Source: Solirubrobacterales bacterium
GTDB lineage: Bacteria > Actinomycetota > Thermoleophilia > Solirubrobacterales > 70-9
Direction: 5' to 3'
Length of the DNA stretch: 64,000 nucleotides
NCBI GenBank assembly: GCA_021155855.1
Contig: JAJNAZ010000012.1
Coordinates: forward strand, 1 to 64,000
Shown here: piece after piece, positions 26,378-37,277 of the stretch
How the letters are laid out: the number at the start of each line of letters is the position of its first letter
Position numbering within the stretch: position 1 is the first letter of the stretch
Notes under the pieces: generated by a model
What the model saw: only the letters and a program-made list of their open reading frames with translations
Database searches by the model: none
What the model was told of the DNA's origin: nothing
Position numbers and translations under genes: made by a program

Positions 26378-27217
26378 GTGCGCTTCGAGAAGTGGCAGGC
26401 GCTGGGCAACGACTACGTGATCGTCGAGCGCGACGCGCTGCCCTGGGAGCTGAGCGAGGAGCGGATCCGGCGCATCTGCGAGCCACACTTCGGCGTCGGC
26501 TCCGACGGCATCCTGCTGCTGGCCCGACCGCAGGACGAGCGTTACGTGGCCGAGCTGCGGATCTTCAACCCCGACGGCTCGGAGGCCGAGCTGTCGGGAA
26601 ACGGCGCGCGCGAGGCGGTGCTCTACCTGCGCGCGTCCGGCTGGACCGAGGAGGACACGTTCACGATCGTCACCAGGGCGGGGGAGCTGACGCCCACGAT
26701 CACCGGCCCGGACGAGGTCTCGATGGCGATCGGGCGGGCGTCACTGAGCTCGCCCGACTATCCGTCGGGCCCCCCCGAAGGTACCGGGACGCTGAGCGCC
26801 GGCAGCCGACGGTGGAGCTTTCGCCATGTCAACGTCGGCAACCCGCAATGCGTGGTCGATGTCGGTGACGAGATCGAGACGCTGGACATCGGTTCCGTCG
26901 GCCACGAGTTCGAGAACCACTCGCTGTTCCCGAACCGCACCAACGTCTCCTTCATCCGCGTCGAGGGCTCCAGGGTCCGGGCGCGAATCTTCGAGCGCGG
27001 CGTGGGGGAGACGCTCTCCTCGGGGACCGGCGCGAGCGGCGCCGCGGTGGCCGCCTTCCTCGACGGCGTGGCGAGCCCGATCACGGTCGTTCTCGACGGA
27101 GGCAAGCTCGCGGTCGAGATCACCGACGAGCTCGACCTGACCCTGATCGGCTCCGCGACTCGGGTCTACTCCGGAGAGCTCGACGGCGGCTTCGTCGGGG
27201 CCCTCGCCGCGGCGTGA
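26378..27217 (+). CDS. dapF: Diaminopimelate epimerase homologue with both catalytic Cys replaced by Ser
   Basis: The 279-residue protein has the two-lobed DapF fold. Substrate-binding residues are retained: Asn11 in LGNDYV, Asn in FNPDGSEAE, VNVGNPQCV and FERGVGET. The two thiols that abstract and donate the alpha-proton in known DapF enzymes are missing. The usual CGNGAR(C) motif reads SGNGARE, with Ser73 at the position of E. coli Cys73. The usual A-C-G-(S/T)-G-A-C motif reads S-S-G-T-G-A-S, with Ser215 at the second catalytic position. Codons are unambiguous (TCG at 26594 and 27020). It is embedded in a DAP gene context next to a dapL-like gene. It may be altered in mechanism, altered in substrate, or inactive. 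Confidence 0.9.
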   Translation: MRFEKWQALGNDYVIVERDALPWELSEERIRRICEPHFGVGSDGILLLARPQDERYVAELRIFNPDGSEAELSGNGAREAVLYLRASGWTEEDTFTIVTRAGELTPTITGPDEVSMAIGRASLSSPDYPSGPPEGTGTLSAGSRRWSFRHVNVGNPQCVVDVGDEIETLDIGSVGHEFENHSLFPNRTNVSFIRVEGSRVRARIFERGVGETLSSGTGASGAAVAAFLDGVASPITVVLDGGKLAVEITDELDLTLIGSATRVYSGELDGGFVGALAAA

Positions 27218-27276
27218 TCGGGGCCCCACGGATCGTGGGCCCGGAGGAGGCCGGCACCGGTAGCCTCTCGCGCGCG

Positions 27277-28449
27277 ATGGCGCTCACCGATCCCTGCAAG
27301 CGGCTGGAGGCCATCCCGCCTTACATGTTCGCCGAGCTCGAGCGCAAGGTCGCGGCCAAGCGCGAGGCCGGAATCGATGTGATCAGCCTCGGCATCGGCG
27401 ACCCCGATCAGCCGACCTACCCGCACGTGATCGAGGCAATGCAGGCGGCGGTGGCCGATCCGGGCACCCACCGGTACCCCTCCAACCGCGGCCGGGCCGA
27501 GTTCCGGGACGCGTTCGCGGGCTTCTACGAGCGCCGCTTCGGGGTCGAGATCGATCCCGAGACCGAGGTGATCCCGGCGATCGGCGCCAAGGAGTGCATC
27601 TACAACCTCTGCTTCGCCTTCCTCGACCCAGCCGACGTGGCGCTCGCCTCCGATCCGGGCTACCCGATCTACACCGGCGGACCTCTGCTGGCCGGCGCCG
27701 AGGCGGCCCTGATGCCGCTCCTCGGTGAGCAGGGGTTTGCCCCGAACCTCGACGCGATCGCCGCCGACGTGCTCGAGCGCGCGCGACTGATGTTTCTCAA
27801 TTACCCCAACAACCCGACCGGGGCGGTCGTCCCCGAGGGTCTGTTCGAGCGGGCGGTGGAGCTGGCGCACGCGAACGAGGTCTTGGTCGTCCACGACAAC
27901 GCCTACTCGGAAACGACCTTCGACGGCTACGTCGCGCCCAGCTTCCTCGCCACGCCGGGGGCGAAGCAGGTCGGGGTCGAGGTCTTCTCGCTCTCCAAGG
28001 GCTTCAACATGACTGGCTGGCGCTGCGCGGCGATCCTCGGCAATCCCGACGCGATCGCCGCCTACTGGCGCCTGAAAACGAACGTCGACTCGGGCCTGTT
28101 CGAGGCGGTGCAGCTCGCCGGCGCCGCGGCGCTCAACGGACCGCGGCGCGCAATCGACGAGATGAACGGCGTCTATCAGCGCCGCCGTGACCTGGTCGTC
28201 GGGGCGCTGCGCGAGATCGGCGTCGAAGTGAGTCCCCCGCGCGGGACGATCTACGTCTGGGCGCCGGTCCCCGAGGGGCACACCTCGTCCTCGTTCGCCG
28301 AGCTCGTGCTCGAGCAGGCGGCGGTGGTGATCTCACCGGGCTCGATGTACGGGCCGAGCGGTGAGGGCTTCTTCCGGATCTCGCTGACCACCCCCGACGA
28401 CCGCCTCGCCGAGGCCGTCGAGCGAATGCGCGAGCACCTCGCCCCGTGA
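27277..28449 (+). CDS. LL-diaminopimelate aminotransferase-like PLP enzyme
   Basis: The 390-residue fold-type I aminotransferase begins CKRLEAIPPYMFAELERKV and VISLGIGDPDQPTYPHV, which closely resembles LL-DAP aminotransferases (DapL) and related class I/II enzymes. It has NYPNNPTG, YSETTFDG, the PLP-lysine in SLSKGFNMTGWR and the C-terminal Arg in FFRISLT. DapL converts tetrahydrodipicolinate directly to LL-DAP; succinyl-DAP aminotransferase is the main alternative. ATG 27277 is preferred over GTG 27214 because of the family N-terminus and a TAGCCT box ending 10 nt upstream. Its place after dapF supports a DAP role. Confidence 0.85.
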   Translation: MALTDPCKRLEAIPPYMFAELERKVAAKREAGIDVISLGIGDPDQPTYPHVIEAMQAAVADPGTHRYPSNRGRAEFRDAFAGFYERRFGVEIDPETEVIPAIGAKECIYNLCFAFLDPADVALASDPGYPIYTGGPLLAGAEAALMPLLGEQGFAPNLDAIAADVLERARLMFLNYPNNPTGAVVPEGLFERAVELAHANEVLVVHDNAYSETTFDGYVAPSFLATPGAKQVGVEVFSLSKGFNMTGWRCAAILGNPDAIAAYWRLKTNVDSGLFEAVQLAGAAALNGPRRAIDEMNGVYQRRRDLVVGALREIGVEVSPPRGTIYVWAPVPEGHTSSSFAELVLEQAAVVISPGSMYGPSGEGFFRISLTTPDDRLAEAVERMREHLAP

Positions 28450-32727: not shown

Positions 32728-33465
32728 CTAACCGCGCATCGCGGCTGCGCGGGCGTTCTCGTGGGCGCTGGCCTCGAGCGTGTCGTCGAGAGGCGCCAGC
32801 TCGGGCTCGGCGCCAGCGCGCCGGGCGAGCGCAAGCTGGATCAGGCGGTCGGCTAGGCGGGCATTCTTCGGCAGCAGCGGGCCGTGCAGGTAGGTGCCGA
32901 ACAGGTTCAGCCGGCGGACGCCCTCGAAGCCGTCGCGTCCGTTGTTGCCGTGACCTCGGATCACCCGCCCCAGCGGCTGGGTCTCGTCGCCTAGATAGGT
33001 CCGCCCGCCGTGGTTCTCGAACCCGGCGATCCGCAGCGGGCCGTTGCCGAGCTCGGCCTCGATCGCCACGTTTCCGATCAGCCGTGGCCCCGGCTCGCGG
33101 ACGGTCTCGAGGTCGACCAGGCCGAGGCCCGGGATCCGCTCGTCGCCGAGCTGGTAGCTGTGGCCGAGCAACTGATATCCGCCGCAGACCGCGAGCACGA
33201 CGGCGGCGTCGTCGATCCCGGCGGCGAGGGCGTCTCGCTTGCTGCGCAGCATGTCGTCGGCGACCAGCCGCTGGTCGCGATCCTGGCCGCCGCCGATGTA
33301 GACGAGGTCGTGGGCGGCGGGATCGAAGCCCTCGCCGGGACCGGCCGCCGCGTGGTCGAAGCCGATATTTCGCCACTGGCAGCGTCGCTGGAGGAAGAGG
33401 ATGTTGCCGCGGTCGGCGTAGATGTTCATCTGCTCCGGATAGAGGGCGAGCAGGCGGAGCCTCAT
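32728..33465 (-). CDS. gatD: Lipid II isoglutaminyl synthase, glutamine amidotransferase subunit
   Basis: The 245-residue class-I-like glutaminase (CobB/CobQ family) has the nucleophile Cys94 in VCGGYQLLGHS and the catalytic His194 in YLHGPLLPKN. The N-terminus LLALYPEQMNIYADRGN matches GatD. GatD supplies ammonia from glutamine to MurT, which amidates the D-Glu of the peptidoglycan stem peptide. In S. aureus the nucleophile is also Cys94. It is the last gene of a four-gene operon, overlapping the methyltransferase stop by 4 nt. The unusual feature is that methyltransferase between murT and gatD. Confidence 0.94.
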   Translation of the reverse strand: MRLRLLALYPEQMNIYADRGNILFLQRRCQWRNIGFDHAAAGPGEGFDPAAHDLVYIGGGQDRDQRLVADDMLRSKRDALAAGIDDAAVVLAVCGGYQLLGHSYQLGDERIPGLGLVDLETVREPGPRLIGNVAIEAELGNGPLRIAGFENHGGRTYLGDETQPLGRVIRGHGNNGRDGFEGVRRLNLFGTYLHGPLLPKNARLADRLIQLALARRAGAEPELAPLDDTLEASAHENARAAAMRG

Positions 33466-34199
33466 CGTCGTCCCTCCAGCACACAGGCGATCGAGCCGAC
33501 ATGGTCGGTGGTCGGGGCGATCTCGATCCGCTCGCGTGGCATCAGGCCCGCCGCGACCGCCTCCGCTTCGAAACCGTCGGCGGTGAGCCGGTCGAGCCGG
33601 ATCGTCGCGGTCTGCTCGCGGAGCGAGCCTTCGGGCGAGACGACCTGCCGTAGCCGGCGGAGTTCGATGCCGCCCTCGTCGCCGCGCACCTCGATCGGCA
33701 GCGAGGAGTAGACCCAGCCGTCGCGTTCGAGCACGTCGGGCAGCGGCGGGTTCCCGTGCGCGACTGCGTCGGCGTCGCCGGACAGCAAGGCCGCAGCAAA
33801 CAAGCCCCCAGGCGCCAGGTGCGCCGCCACCCGCTCGAACATTGCCGCGCGCCCCGCCGGCCCGCCGAGTAGATGCGCGAGCTGCATCGGCGCCAGGATC
33901 GCCGCGAAGCGGCGCTCGAGCTCAAACGCCCGCGCCTCGGCGACGACCGCCTCGACTTCTATACGAGCGGCCTCGGCTCGCCGGCGCAGCTCGGCGAGCA
34001 GCGCCGGCGAGCGGTCGAGCGCGATCACCGCATGGCCCTCGGCCGCGAGGTGCACGGCGACCCGGCCGGTCCCGCAGCCGAGCTCGAGCACCGGCCCGGC
34101 GGCCTCGCGGGCGAGCTCGGTCCAGAGCGCCAGGTCGGCCGCGTAGGCGCCACATTCGACCTCATGCCAGATCACCTCGTCACCGGTCGCGATCGTCAT
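33462..34199 (-). CDS. Class I SAM-dependent methyltransferase within the murT-gatD operon
   Basis: The 245-residue protein has motif I VLELGCGTGRVAVHLA (about 38-53), an acidic residue ending motif II (VIALDRSP), LAPMQLAHLL and the post-motif region HLAPGGLFAAALLSG. The C-terminal beta-rich part (IELRRLRQVVSPEGSL, REQTATIRLDRLT) is typical of small-molecule methyltransferases. It overlaps murT upstream and gatD downstream by 4 nt each (ATGA), implying tight co-translation. The substrate is unknown. Context suggests a peptidoglycan precursor or an envelope metabolite, but this is inference. Confidence 0.9.
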   Translation of the reverse strand: MTIATGDEVIWHEVECGAYAADLALWTELAREAAGPVLELGCGTGRVAVHLAAEGHAVIALDRSPALLAELRRRAEAARIEVEAVVAEARAFELERRFAAILAPMQLAHLLGGPAGRAAMFERVAAHLAPGGLFAAALLSGDADAVAHGNPPLPDVLERDGWVYSSLPIEVRGDEGGIELRRLRQVVSPEGSLREQTATIRLDRLTADGFEAEAVAAGLMPRERIEIAPTTDHVGSIACVLEGRR

Positions 34200-35608
34200 C
34201 GCCAGAACTCCGCGGCGAGCCCGCGGGACGCGAGCAGCGTGCGCAGCTCGAGCAGAGCGGTGTAGGTCGGGAGCGCGAAAAGCCGCGACTCGGCCTCGGC
34301 CACCGCGCGGTCCAGCCCCCGCTCGATCGAGGGCTCGACCTCGATCGACTCCGGCGCCAATCCGGCGTACTTCAGCCGCAGGGCCATCTCAGGCGCCCGG
34401 GTCCCTGCGCAGAGGATGCGCCGCACATAGCCCGCGATGAGCTCGAAGTCGGCATCCCAGATCCAGGAGATGTCGCGCCCGTCGGCGATCCCGTCGTTGA
34501 GCGCGATCAAGAGATCGATCCCGTCGCCGGCGTCGGCCGATCCGCGCGTCGCCTCCAGCCGCAGCGTGCGCAGGACCTCGTTCGCGCCGGCCGGGTTCTT
34601 GATCAGCAGGATCGATACCGATACGCCTTCGACCGCGATCGTCTCCACGCGGCCGAAAGCGGCCTCGACCTTCGCCAGCGCGCCGACCGCGTGCTCCAAA
34701 CCGATGCCGAGCCGTAACGCGGCGGCGAGCGCGGCGAGCGCGTTGTAGACGTTGTAGAGACCGGGCAGCGGCAGCTCGAGCGTCGCCTCGCCCTCGCGGG
34801 TTCGGACCCGGGCCCGCGAGCCGTCCATGCCGCGGAGCTCGATCGCGGTCGCGGCGACGTCGGGCGCGGGGCGATCCGCGTCGCAGTTGGGGCACTCGTA
34901 GTGGCCGAGGTGGCCGACGAAGGCGCGGTGGTAGGTGTACGGCGACCCGCAGCGGCGGCAATGCTTGGCGTCGTGAGCGTGCTGAAGCTCGGGTAGTGCC
35001 TGCTCGGGGTCCTCGATCCCGAAATAGGTGACGCCCTCGCGCCGGCGCAGCTCACGGTCACGACCGAGATCGGCGACGAGTGGATCGTCCGCGTTGAGCA
35101 CGAAGCCCGTGGATCCGGCCCGCTCGGAGACCAGCGCCGCCCAGTCGTCGGCGAGCCGCTCGAGCTCGCCGTATCGGTCGAGCTGGTCGCGAAACAGGTT
35201 GGCGAGCACGACCAGGCGTGGGGCGAGCTCGGCGACCATCCTCGGCAGCCACGCCTCATCGACCTCGAACAGGCCCTCGCGGCCACGCTGCTCGAGCAGC
35301 GCCGTAGCCACACCCCAGCTCATGTTCGAGCCGGCGCGGTTGTGGACCGGGTCGCGGCCGACCGTGCGCAGCGCGGCGGCGATCATCCCCGCCGTGGTCG
35401 TCTTGCCGTTGGTGGCGCTGACGATCGTCGACCCCCCGGTGAGGTCCACCGCGAGCCGCGCGACCGCGTCGGGGGCCAGGCGCAGGAGCAGCCGTCCCGG
35501 GAGCGTTGTGCCGCCGCCGCGGCCACTGCGCCGGCTCAACGATCCGGTCGCCCGCGCGAGCGCGAGCTTGGCCCGAAAGCCGGCCCCGGTTGCGCCCGGC
35601 GCGCTCAT
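34196..35608 (-). CDS. murT: Lipid II isoglutaminyl synthase, Mur-ligase-like subunit
   Basis: The 470-residue Mur ligase homologue has the ATP loop SATNGKTTT (64-72), the central domain with LFRDQLDRYGEL, and an inserted zinc ribbon (CRRC and CPNC around 205-235). The C-terminal DUF1727 domain has NDGIADGRDISWIWDADFE, whose Asp is part of the MurT-GatD catalytic triad in S. aureus. MurT activates the alpha-carboxyl of D-Glu in lipid II for amidation with GatD-derived ammonia. ATG 35608 overlaps the lipid-kinase stop by 4 nt. Longer upstream frames are spurious. Confidence 0.95.
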   Translation of the reverse strand: MSAPGATGAGFRAKLALARATGSLSRRSGRGGGTTLPGRLLLRLAPDAVARLAVDLTGGSTIVSATNGKTTTAGMIAAALRTVGRDPVHNRAGSNMSWGVATALLEQRGREGLFEVDEAWLPRMVAELAPRLVVLANLFRDQLDRYGELERLADDWAALVSERAGSTGFVLNADDPLVADLGRDRELRRREGVTYFGIEDPEQALPELQHAHDAKHCRRCGSPYTYHRAFVGHLGHYECPNCDADRPAPDVAATAIELRGMDGSRARVRTREGEATLELPLPGLYNVYNALAALAAALRLGIGLEHAVGALAKVEAAFGRVETIAVEGVSVSILLIKNPAGANEVLRTLRLEATRGSADAGDGIDLLIALNDGIADGRDISWIWDADFELIAGYVRRILCAGTRAPEMALRLKYAGLAPESIEVEPSIERGLDRAVAEAESRLFALPTYTALLELRTLLASRGLAAEFWR

Positions 35609-36486
35609 TTCGGCACGATCACCCGCAGGGCTCGCGGCAGGACGCGCACCGTCGCCGGCAGGTCGGCCAGGTGGTCGCCGTCGGCGTAGACGGCGAACGG
35701 CCTGTCGGCCTCGATCCGCACCTCCGCTGCCCGCGAGACCGTGATCTCGTCGTTGTCGACGTGCGTGCCGTCGAACACCTTCGGCAGATTGACCAGGAAG
35801 CGAAGCTTGCCCACCTCGCCGGTGCTGACGACGTCGAGAAGCCCGTCGTCGAGCTTCGCATCTGGGGCGATGAACATGCCGCCGCCGTACGCGGGACTGT
35901 TGGCCGCGGCGACCGAGTAGCCGCCGAACCGGTGCCGCTCGCCGTCGAGGGTGAGAGTGAAGCGGGCCGGCCTCCAGACCGCAAGCGCACGCAGCGCCGC
36001 GTAAGCGTAGACGAGCCTGCCGCGGAACCACTTCGCCTCGTTGGCGATGCGGTTGGCATCGGAGTCGAAGCCGCAGCTGGCGATCCCGAGAAAGCGCTTG
36101 CCGTTGACCTCGCCGACATCGATCTCGCGCGGCGCGCCGGTCGCGAGCACCGCCGCCGCCGCGGCGACGTCGTCGGGGATGCCGGTGACACGGGCGAAGT
36201 CGTTCCCGCGGCCGCCCGGGATCACGCCCAGCAGCGCGCCGGTGTCGGCGAGTGTCCCGCCGACCTGTCCGATCAGCCCGTCGCCGCTCATCACCACCGT
36301 GGTCTCGCCGGCCTCCGCAGCCGCGGCGGCCTCGTGACAGCCGTGGTCGATGTCGTCGGTGAACACGCGGCGGTACTCGATCCTGTGCGCGCGCAGCGCC
36401 CGCTCCGCGGCGGGAAGCAGCTCGCGCACCCGGCCCCCGCCCGCGGAGGGGTTGACGAGTAGCAGGTGTCGGTCGCCGGTCGCCAT
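35605..36486 (-). CDS. Diacylglycerol kinase family lipid kinase (YegS/BmrU/DgkB-like)
   Basis: The 293-residue protein starts at ATG 36486 (MATGDRHLLLVNPSAGGG); GTG 36516 is an alternative. The nucleotide-binding loop MSGDGLIGQVGGTL and GVIPGGRGNDFARV (GGTGNDxAR-like) are diagnostic. The C-terminal beta-sandwich ends EADRPFAVYADGDHL. These cytosolic or peripheral kinases phosphorylate diacylglycerol or related lipids, recycling lipids released by envelope synthesis. It is the first gene of the kinase-murT-methyltransferase-gatD operon. The catalytic loop is GGDG in most members and SGDG here. Confidence 0.92.
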   Translation of the reverse strand: MATGDRHLLLVNPSAGGGRVRELLPAAERALRAHRIEYRRVFTDDIDHGCHEAAAAAEAGETTVVMSGDGLIGQVGGTLADTGALLGVIPGGRGNDFARVTGIPDDVAAAAAVLATGAPREIDVGEVNGKRFLGIASCGFDSDANRIANEAKWFRGRLVYAYAALRALAVWRPARFTLTLDGERHRFGGYSVAAANSPAYGGGMFIAPDAKLDDGLLDVVSTGEVGKLRFLVNLPKVFDGTHVDNDEITVSRAAEVRIEADRPFAVYADGDHLADLPATVRVLPRALRVIVPK

Positions 36487-36522: not shown

Positions 36523-37176
36523 TCACCCGCGGATGCGCTTGCGCGCCACGAACCAGGTCCCGGTGTCGGTCTCACCGACGGTTGCCGACTCGAATCCCCG
36601 CCGGCGAAGGCCCCGCTCGAGCACCGCGGGCGGGGTGTAGAAGGGCGTCGCCTCGCCCCAGCTCGCAGCGACGATCACATGTCCGCCGGGCCGCAGCACG
36701 CGCGCGATCTCGTCGAAGAAGGGCGGCATGTTGAGCTGCGCGACGAGGTCGAAGGACTCGTCGCCATAGGGCAGCCCGATCGCGTCGGCGACCCGGAACG
36801 CGATCCGGCCGTCGGGATCGAGGCCCACCTTGGCCTGCGCGGCGCGAATCATCTCCTCGGAGATGTCGACGCCGCGAACGCTCGCACGCGGAAATTCGCG
36901 GGCCAAAAACAGGGCCGACTCGCCGGTCCCGGTACCGAGGTCGAGCACCCGTTCGGGGGCGGGCTCGATCCGCGTGCAGGCCGCCGCAAACGCCGCCAGA
37001 TGGTCGACCGAGCCCGCTCGCGTGCGCTCGTCCCAGCCGGCCGACGCACGGTCGAAGAAGCGGCGCAACGCCGGTCGCATCACCGGCCACAGCCAGGGCG
37101 CGTGCGCGATGGTCACGTTCACCGCCCGGCCCGCTACCCGGATGCGCGCCGGGGTCGGACGTCCGGAGCCTTCCAC
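36523..37176 (-). CDS. Class I SAM-dependent methyltransferase
   Basis: The methyltransferase domain has motif I VLDLGTGTGESALFLA, motif II VRGVDISEEMI, motif IV FDLVAQLNMPPFF and motif V LRPGGHVIVAAS, of the UbiE/Methyltransf_11 type. N-terminally AHAPWLWPVMRPALRRFFDRA precedes the fold. The start is uncertain: GTG 37176 is used here, GTG 37122 gives a shorter product, and ATG 37260 adds a compositionally odd N-terminus. The substrate is unknown. It is a monocistronic gene divergent from the cyclophilin gene. Confidence 0.85.
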   Translation of the reverse strand: MEGSGRPTPARIRVAGRAVNVTIAHAPWLWPVMRPALRRFFDRASAGWDERTRAGSVDHLAAFAAACTRIEPAPERVLDLGTGTGESALFLAREFPRASVRGVDISEEMIRAAQAKVGLDPDGRIAFRVADAIGLPYGDESFDLVAQLNMPPFFDEIARVLRPGGHVIVAASWGEATPFYTPPAVLERGLRRRGFESATVGETDTGTWFVARKRIRG

Positions 37177-37277
37177 CGGCCCATCATCGCAAGGCGCTGG
37201 CGCGCCGCCGATTTCGCCGAACCGTTCCGCGCAGGGGTGTGACCGGCTCGTGGCAAGCAAACTAAGGTTTCCGCCCG

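What the first reader, a model, noticed from the sequence alone, without database searches (positions are those of the whole stretch)
32728..36486. Methyltransferase embedded between murT and gatD in a fully overlapping operon
MurT and GatD form one enzyme complex amidating lipid II. Here a class I SAM methyltransferase gene lies between them, with ATGA overlaps at all three junctions (kinase/murT, murT/methyltransferase, methyltransferase/gatD). Such coupling enforces stoichiometric co-synthesis. This raises the possibility of a methylated peptidoglycan precursor, for example methylation of the stem peptide, or methylation of the polyprenyl carrier.
Basis: partly seen in the sequence, partly recalled or inferred. 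Interest (0 to 1): 0.65.

Follow-up and report, generated by a model that had tools for sequence, protein, structure and literature searches.

The report
Methyltransferase gene inside murT-gatD operon
In one large group of soil bacteria (Solirubrobacterales and one related family) a methyltransferase gene sits between the two genes of the enzyme that amidates cell-wall precursors; it is kept by selection but can be lost or kept without them, so it is probably a separate cell-envelope tailoring enzyme, and a candidate for the unidentified enzyme that methylates peptidoglycan.

Summary
On the minus strand the order is lipid kinase - murT - class I SAM methyltransferase (MT) - gatD, with ATGA overlaps at all three junctions. 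It is not unique to this strain: in Solirubrobacterales, 122 of 139 genomes with MurT have MT directly downstream, and in a second family of the class 38 of 38 matched genomes do. Sampled loci elsewhere in the class and phylum carry no such insert. MT is under purifying selection (omega about 0.25), and its model fits amine N-methyltransferases (TylM1, CypM, CcbJ, GSMT) along its whole length.

The "stoichiometric complex" reading fails. Twelve genomes have MurT but no MT. Two near-complete genomes keep MT at the locus but lack murT and gatD, although they have mraY. In a third case murT has moved away from MT-gatD. MT is therefore most likely a separate enzyme.

A peptidoglycan-precursor substrate is plausible but untested: dapF lies nearby, meso-DAP is reported for Solirubrobacter, and methylated stem peptides are known in mycobacteria and Pseudomonas; I found no paper assigning an enzyme. 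The polyprenyl-carrier idea has no support.

The parts
32728..33465 (-). gatD, glutamine amidotransferase subunit of lipid II isoglutaminyl synthase
   Evidence: PF07685 E 5e-35; NCBIfam GatD models 191/179 bits, below strict cut-offs; Cys94 and His194 conserved in all or all but one of 53 loci
33462..34199 (-). MT: class I SAM-dependent methyltransferase, 245 aa, between murT and gatD
   Evidence: PF13649 E 4e-17; AF2 pLDDT 93.1; full-length structural matches to TylM1, CypM, CalS10, DesVI, KedS8, GSMT, CcbJ; invariant W11 E15 D22 R117 P154 D155 S166 R182 R184 besides the SAM motif
34196..35608 (-). murT, Mur-ligase-like subunit of lipid II isoglutaminyl synthase
   Evidence: PF08353 E 8e-30 and PF08245 E 1e-17; P-loop Lys69 and Cys217/220/239/242
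35605..36486 (-). YegS/BmrU-family lipid (diacylglycerol-type) kinase, first gene of the overlapping run
   Evidence: PF19279 and PF00781; TIGR00147 above cut-off
36523..37182 (-). MT2: second, unrelated-subfamily class I methyltransferase 36 bp upstream of the kinase; found in the same place in several relatives
   Evidence: PF13649/PF08241; hits beside DAGK or MurT in L166, L167, L170, L074, L076, L080, L085
35605..35608 (-). ATGA overlap kinase/murT
   Evidence: sequence
34196..34199 (-). ATGA overlap murT/MT
   Evidence: sequence
33462..33465 (-). ATGA overlap MT/gatD
   Evidence: sequence
26378..27217 (+). diaminopimelate epimerase (dapF), nearby wall/lysine pathway gene, with an aminotransferase gene at 27214-28449; the same pair lies beside hflX in G049
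   Evidence: PF01678 E 8.5e-41, PF00155 E 1.3e-59; L153

Best explanation
A lineage-specific, stand-alone SAM methyltransferase is co-expressed with the MurT-GatD amidotransferase from one translationally coupled operon and most likely tailors a cytoplasmic peptidoglycan precursor (the stem peptide of UDP-MurNAc-pentapeptide, lipid I or lipid II, at a free amine or carboxylate of meso-DAP, or a carboxylate of Glu or Ala) in parallel with amidation. It is not a third subunit. Shown: gene, operon, conservation in the slot, purifying selection, fold class, mutual dispensability with MurT and GatD. Inferred: co-expression, activity, and above all the substrate.
For: In the slot in 122 of 139 MurT-bearing Solirubrobacterales genomes sampled and 38 of 38 matched genomes of family f5; absent from the slot in 33 sampled MurT loci from class families f6-f11 and from the rest of the phylum. 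Purifying selection like its partners: median omega MT 0.25, MurT 0.23, GatD 0.18, kinase 0.20. Fold: TylM1 Z 24.9, CypM 24.6, CalS10 24.2, GSMT 23.2, CcbJ 23.1, all over about 225 residues, mostly N-methyltransferases of amino sugars, peptides and amino acids. Context: MurT-GatD, with dapF 4 kb beyond hflX. meso-DAP was found in Solirubrobacter cells (PMC10722151). Methylation of Glu, mDAP or terminal Ala of stem peptides is reported in M. smegmatis, and O-methylated terminal Ala in P. aeruginosa, function unknown (PMC12632261, PMC9239049). G049 and G054, which keep MT without MurT-GatD, have mraY, so a precursor is still there to act on. In genus g18 a GGACT/AIG2-like gene also sits between murT and MT.
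Against: No direct evidence of substrate. MT diverges faster than its neighbours (median identity to the window 49%, against 64% MurT and 69% GatD). Extra copies stand far from any murT (L163, L082) and a remote homologue stands beside an FAD oxidase gene (L165). About five lineages lose MT without losing MurT-GatD. Operon membership alone does not give a substrate.
Confidence: 0.4

Rival explanations
1. MT methylates a small molecule or metabolite unrelated to peptidoglycan and is a passenger whose place in the operon was inherited from one old insertion.
For: Stand-alone copies away from murT (L163, L082, L165). Closest sequence and fold relatives act on antibiotics, sugars and amino acids. 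The gene survives without MurT-GatD and MurT-GatD survive without it. The slot also accepted a GGACT-like gene in g18, so it may simply be permissive.
Against: Position between two obligate partners kept in over 150 genomes of two families' worth of divergence, with -4 or -1 overlaps kept at most junctions; sampled outgroup MurT-GatD pairs carry no insert at all, so the slot is not generally permissive.
Confidence: 0.4
2. MT is a third subunit of the MurT-GatD complex, or methylates MurT or GatD.
For: Translational coupling at both junctions.
Against: MT kept where MurT and GatD are absent from the genome (G049, G054); MurT-GatD intact and adjacent where MT is absent (L056, L057, L060, L166-L172); murT separated from MT-gatD in g32 (L155-L160).
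Confidence: 0.08
3. MT works with the YegS-type lipid kinase on a lipid or polyprenyl phosphate; the kinase-MT pair is what survives when murT and gatD go.
For: Kinase-MT adjacency with no gap in L153/L028 and L154, and in L155, L157, L159.
Against: No kinase hit beside the MT in family f5; kinase kept in most MT-less loci (L166-L168, L171, L172); the fold neighbours are soluble small-molecule methyltransferases, not membrane lipid enzymes.
Confidence: 0.08

Closest known systems
murT-gatD lipid II isoglutaminyl synthase operon (S. aureus, S. pneumoniae, mycobacteria)
   Same: Both subunits present with conserved catalytic-type and zinc-ribbon-type residues
   Different: A methyltransferase gene lies between them; sampled Actinomycetota outside this clade have murT directly followed by gatD
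TylM1/DesVI/CalS10/KedS8 amino-sugar N-methyltransferases; CcbJ; CypM; GSMT
   Same: Whole-length fold including the beta lid (TylM1 4oqd Z 24.9, rmsd 2.4, 228 residues)
   Different: About 20% identity; no natural-product cluster; cell-wall operon context; substrate unknown
Daptide methyltransferase (NF041820, MpaM type)
   Same: Best NCBIfam hit, E 1.1e-31 over nearly the whole length; MpaM does N,N-dimethylation of a peptide-borne amine (PMC10036551)
   Different: 110 bits against a cut-off of 175; no daptide genes at the locus
Methylated stem peptides of M. smegmatis lipid II, M. leprae and P. aeruginosa muropeptides
   Same: The modification this enzyme would make under the best explanation (PMC4995902, PMC12632261, PMC9239049)
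   Different: The passages read name no enzyme or gene for it; no muropeptide data found for Solirubrobacterales

Membership tests
Lipid II isoglutaminyl synthase MurT-GatD | MurT_C and Mur_ligase_M domains; GATase_3 domain | tested here: met
   Pfam above cut-offs
Lipid II isoglutaminyl synthase MurT-GatD | Catalytic-type Cys/His in GatD, zinc-ribbon-type Cys and P-loop in MurT | tested here: met
   Cys94, His194; Cys217/220/239/242, Lys69
Lipid II isoglutaminyl synthase MurT-GatD | NCBIfam equivalog cut-offs (NF045635, NF045636) | tested here: not met
   227 against 800 and 191 against 400 bits; these strict models are best hits but score far below cut-off, so the names rest on Pfam, operon and residues
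Class I SAM-dependent methyltransferase | Rossmann fold with glycine-rich motif I | tested here: met
   Methyltransf_25; model and motif LxLGxGTGR
Daptide-type methyltransferase (NF041820) | Curated score cut-off 175 bits | tested here: not met
   110.2 bits
TylM1-type amine N,N-dimethyltransferase | Whole-length fold including C-terminal beta lid | tested here: met
   Z 24.9, 228 residues aligned
TylM1-type amine N,N-dimethyltransferase | Catalytic residues of TylM1 and amine N-methylation activity | not tested
   No residue-level mapping to TylM1 was made; activity needs the bench
Peptidoglycan-precursor methyltransferase | Transfer of methyl to lipid II or a nucleotide precursor | not testable with these tools
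   Needs enzyme assay or muropeptide mass spectrometry

The most novel reading that the evidence does not exclude
This gene family is a dedicated methyltransferase of peptidoglycan precursors: an enzyme and gene for stem-peptide methylation, a modification seen chemically in mycobacteria and Pseudomonas for which I found no assigned enzyme.
Probability: 0.3. Interest if true: 0.75.

Novelty: new variant of a known kind. Interest (0 to 1): 0.45.

Why it matters
Methylated stem peptides have been reported from M. smegmatis, M. leprae and P. aeruginosa, with function described as unknown (PMC12632261, PMC9239049, PMC4995902). A methyltransferase fixed inside the amidation operon of a whole bacterial order is a concrete, testable candidate, with natural knock-outs (MT-less sister genera) and natural MT-only strains to compare. 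If the substrate is something else, the case still shows that tight gene overlap between obligate partners does not imply a complex.

Tried and rejected
Stoichiometric third subunit: rejected on gene-loss evidence. Independent (convergent) recruitment of MT in family f5: suggested by the first tree and by profile scores (f5 closer to free-standing Myxococcota and Chloroflexota enzymes than to the Solirubrobacterales MT), but the AU test does not reject one clade of the two (p 0.56, and the held tree scores 4.1 log units higher), and the MurT+GatD tree does not reject the two groups as one clade either (p 0.65, held tree 3.35 higher). One old insertion and two insertions both stay open. Membership in the daptide methyltransferase family: score below cut-off. 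Literature for an already described murT-methyltransferase-gatD operon or a peptidoglycan methyltransferase: nothing relevant found in the open library.

Full report
What is there. The minus strand carries a lipid kinase (36486..35605), murT (35608..34196), a class I SAM methyltransferase, here MT (34199..33462), and gatD (33465..32728), with a four-base ATGA overlap at each of the three junctions. Pfam names all four above gathering scores. GatD keeps its Cys94 and His194, MurT its P-loop lysine and four zinc-ribbon-type cysteines, and these are conserved in all or nearly all of 53 aligned loci, so the amidotransferase should work. A second methyltransferase (MT2) lies 36 bp upstream of the kinase.

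How widespread. The genome belongs to the order Solirubrobacterales of the class Thermoleophilia, judged from the titles of the nearest records. Of 151 genomes of the order, 139 have a MurT_C hit and 129 an MT ortholog at E 1e-20 or better; in 122 the MT lies directly downstream of murT on the same strand. In another family of the class (f5, unnamed in the data) 38 of 38 genomes with both genes listed have MT in the same slot. In the sampled MurT loci of families f6-f11 and of the rest of the phylum, murT is followed by gatD (in all but a few where no GatD hit was found), and no MT hit falls between them. MT in f5 is remote (29-39% identity). Whether this is one old insertion or two is unresolved: trees and profile scores lean one way, AU tests do not reject a single origin.

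Is MT functional. The SAM motif and further residues (W11, E15, D22, R117, P154, D155, S166, R182, R184) are invariant in 27 orthologs. Close pairs give a median dN/dS of 0.25 for MT, against 0.23, 0.18 and 0.20 for MurT, GatD and the kinase. MT is the fastest-diverging of the four by identity to the window (49% median).

Natural experiments. Twelve genomes of the order have MurT but no MT ortholog; in the ten loci read, GatD directly follows MurT (L056, L057, L060, L166-L172). On the MurT+GatD tree this needs about five changes, three forced by well-supported branches. Two genomes, G049 and G054 (96% and 94% complete), have neither MurT nor GatD anywhere, yet keep MT between the kinase and dut on a continuous stretch (L153, L154), and in G049 the kinase and MT overlap by ATGA. 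Both have mraY, so they still make peptidoglycan. In three genomes of genus g32, kinase-MT-gatD stay together while murT is on another contig. MT and the amidotransferase are thus dispensable for each other over evolution. That argues strongly against an obligate complex and against MT acting only on the amidated product.

What kind of enzyme. The AlphaFold2 model (pLDDT 93) aligns over its whole length with amine N-methyltransferases: TylM1 Z 24.9, CypM 24.6, CalS10 24.2, DesVI 24.0, KedS8 23.4, GSMT 23.2, CcbJ 23.1, with the uncharacterised 3d2l at 25.8 (Foldseek agrees). C-methyltransferases such as PsmD follow at 22.5. The best NCBIfam model is the daptide methyltransferase, 110 bits against a cut-off of 175; MpaM of that family dimethylates a peptide-borne amine (PMC10036551). 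A shared fold does not prove the acceptor atom.

Most likely role. Peptidoglycan tailoring fits the operon, the nearby dapF gene, meso-DAP in Solirubrobacter (PMC10722151), and the known but enzymatically unexplained methylation of Glu, mDAP or Ala in stem peptides elsewhere (PMC12632261, PMC9239049, PMC4995902). An unrelated metabolite as substrate is about as likely, given stand-alone copies (L163, L082) and independent losses. I give 0.4 to each, and 0.08 each to a complex with MurT-GatD and to a lipid substrate shared with the kinase.

Limits. Only open-access papers were searched. The gene-overlap base rate comes from one window with a crude gene caller. No residue-level comparison with TylM1's catalytic residues was made.

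Noticed in passing
L010:917-1498 (+); L073:5396-5968 (+): In genus g18 a GGACT/AIG2-like gamma-glutamyl cyclotransferase-type gene is inserted between murT and MT, its stop overlapping the MT start in L010; striking because the stem peptide contains a gamma-glutamyl bond.
   Followed up: partly
window 36523-37182 (-): A second class I methyltransferase (MT2) directly upstream of the kinase, found in the same place in several relatives, including some that lack MT.
   Followed up: partly
L163:6156-6848; L082:6001-6705: Closely related stand-alone MT copies with no murT nearby, one of them in the cultured Solirubrobacter taibaiensis KCTC 29222.
   Followed up: partly
L165:5078-5851: A remote MT homologue in G012 next to an FAD-binding oxidase gene and an MFS transporter gene, a different context.
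   Followed up: no
window 26378-28449 (+): dapF and an aminotransferase gene overlapping by 4 bases, a few kb from hflX; the same pair lies beside hflX in G049.
   Followed up: no
G091 and G107: Two MurT_C hits in one genome each; the second copies were not examined.
   Followed up: no
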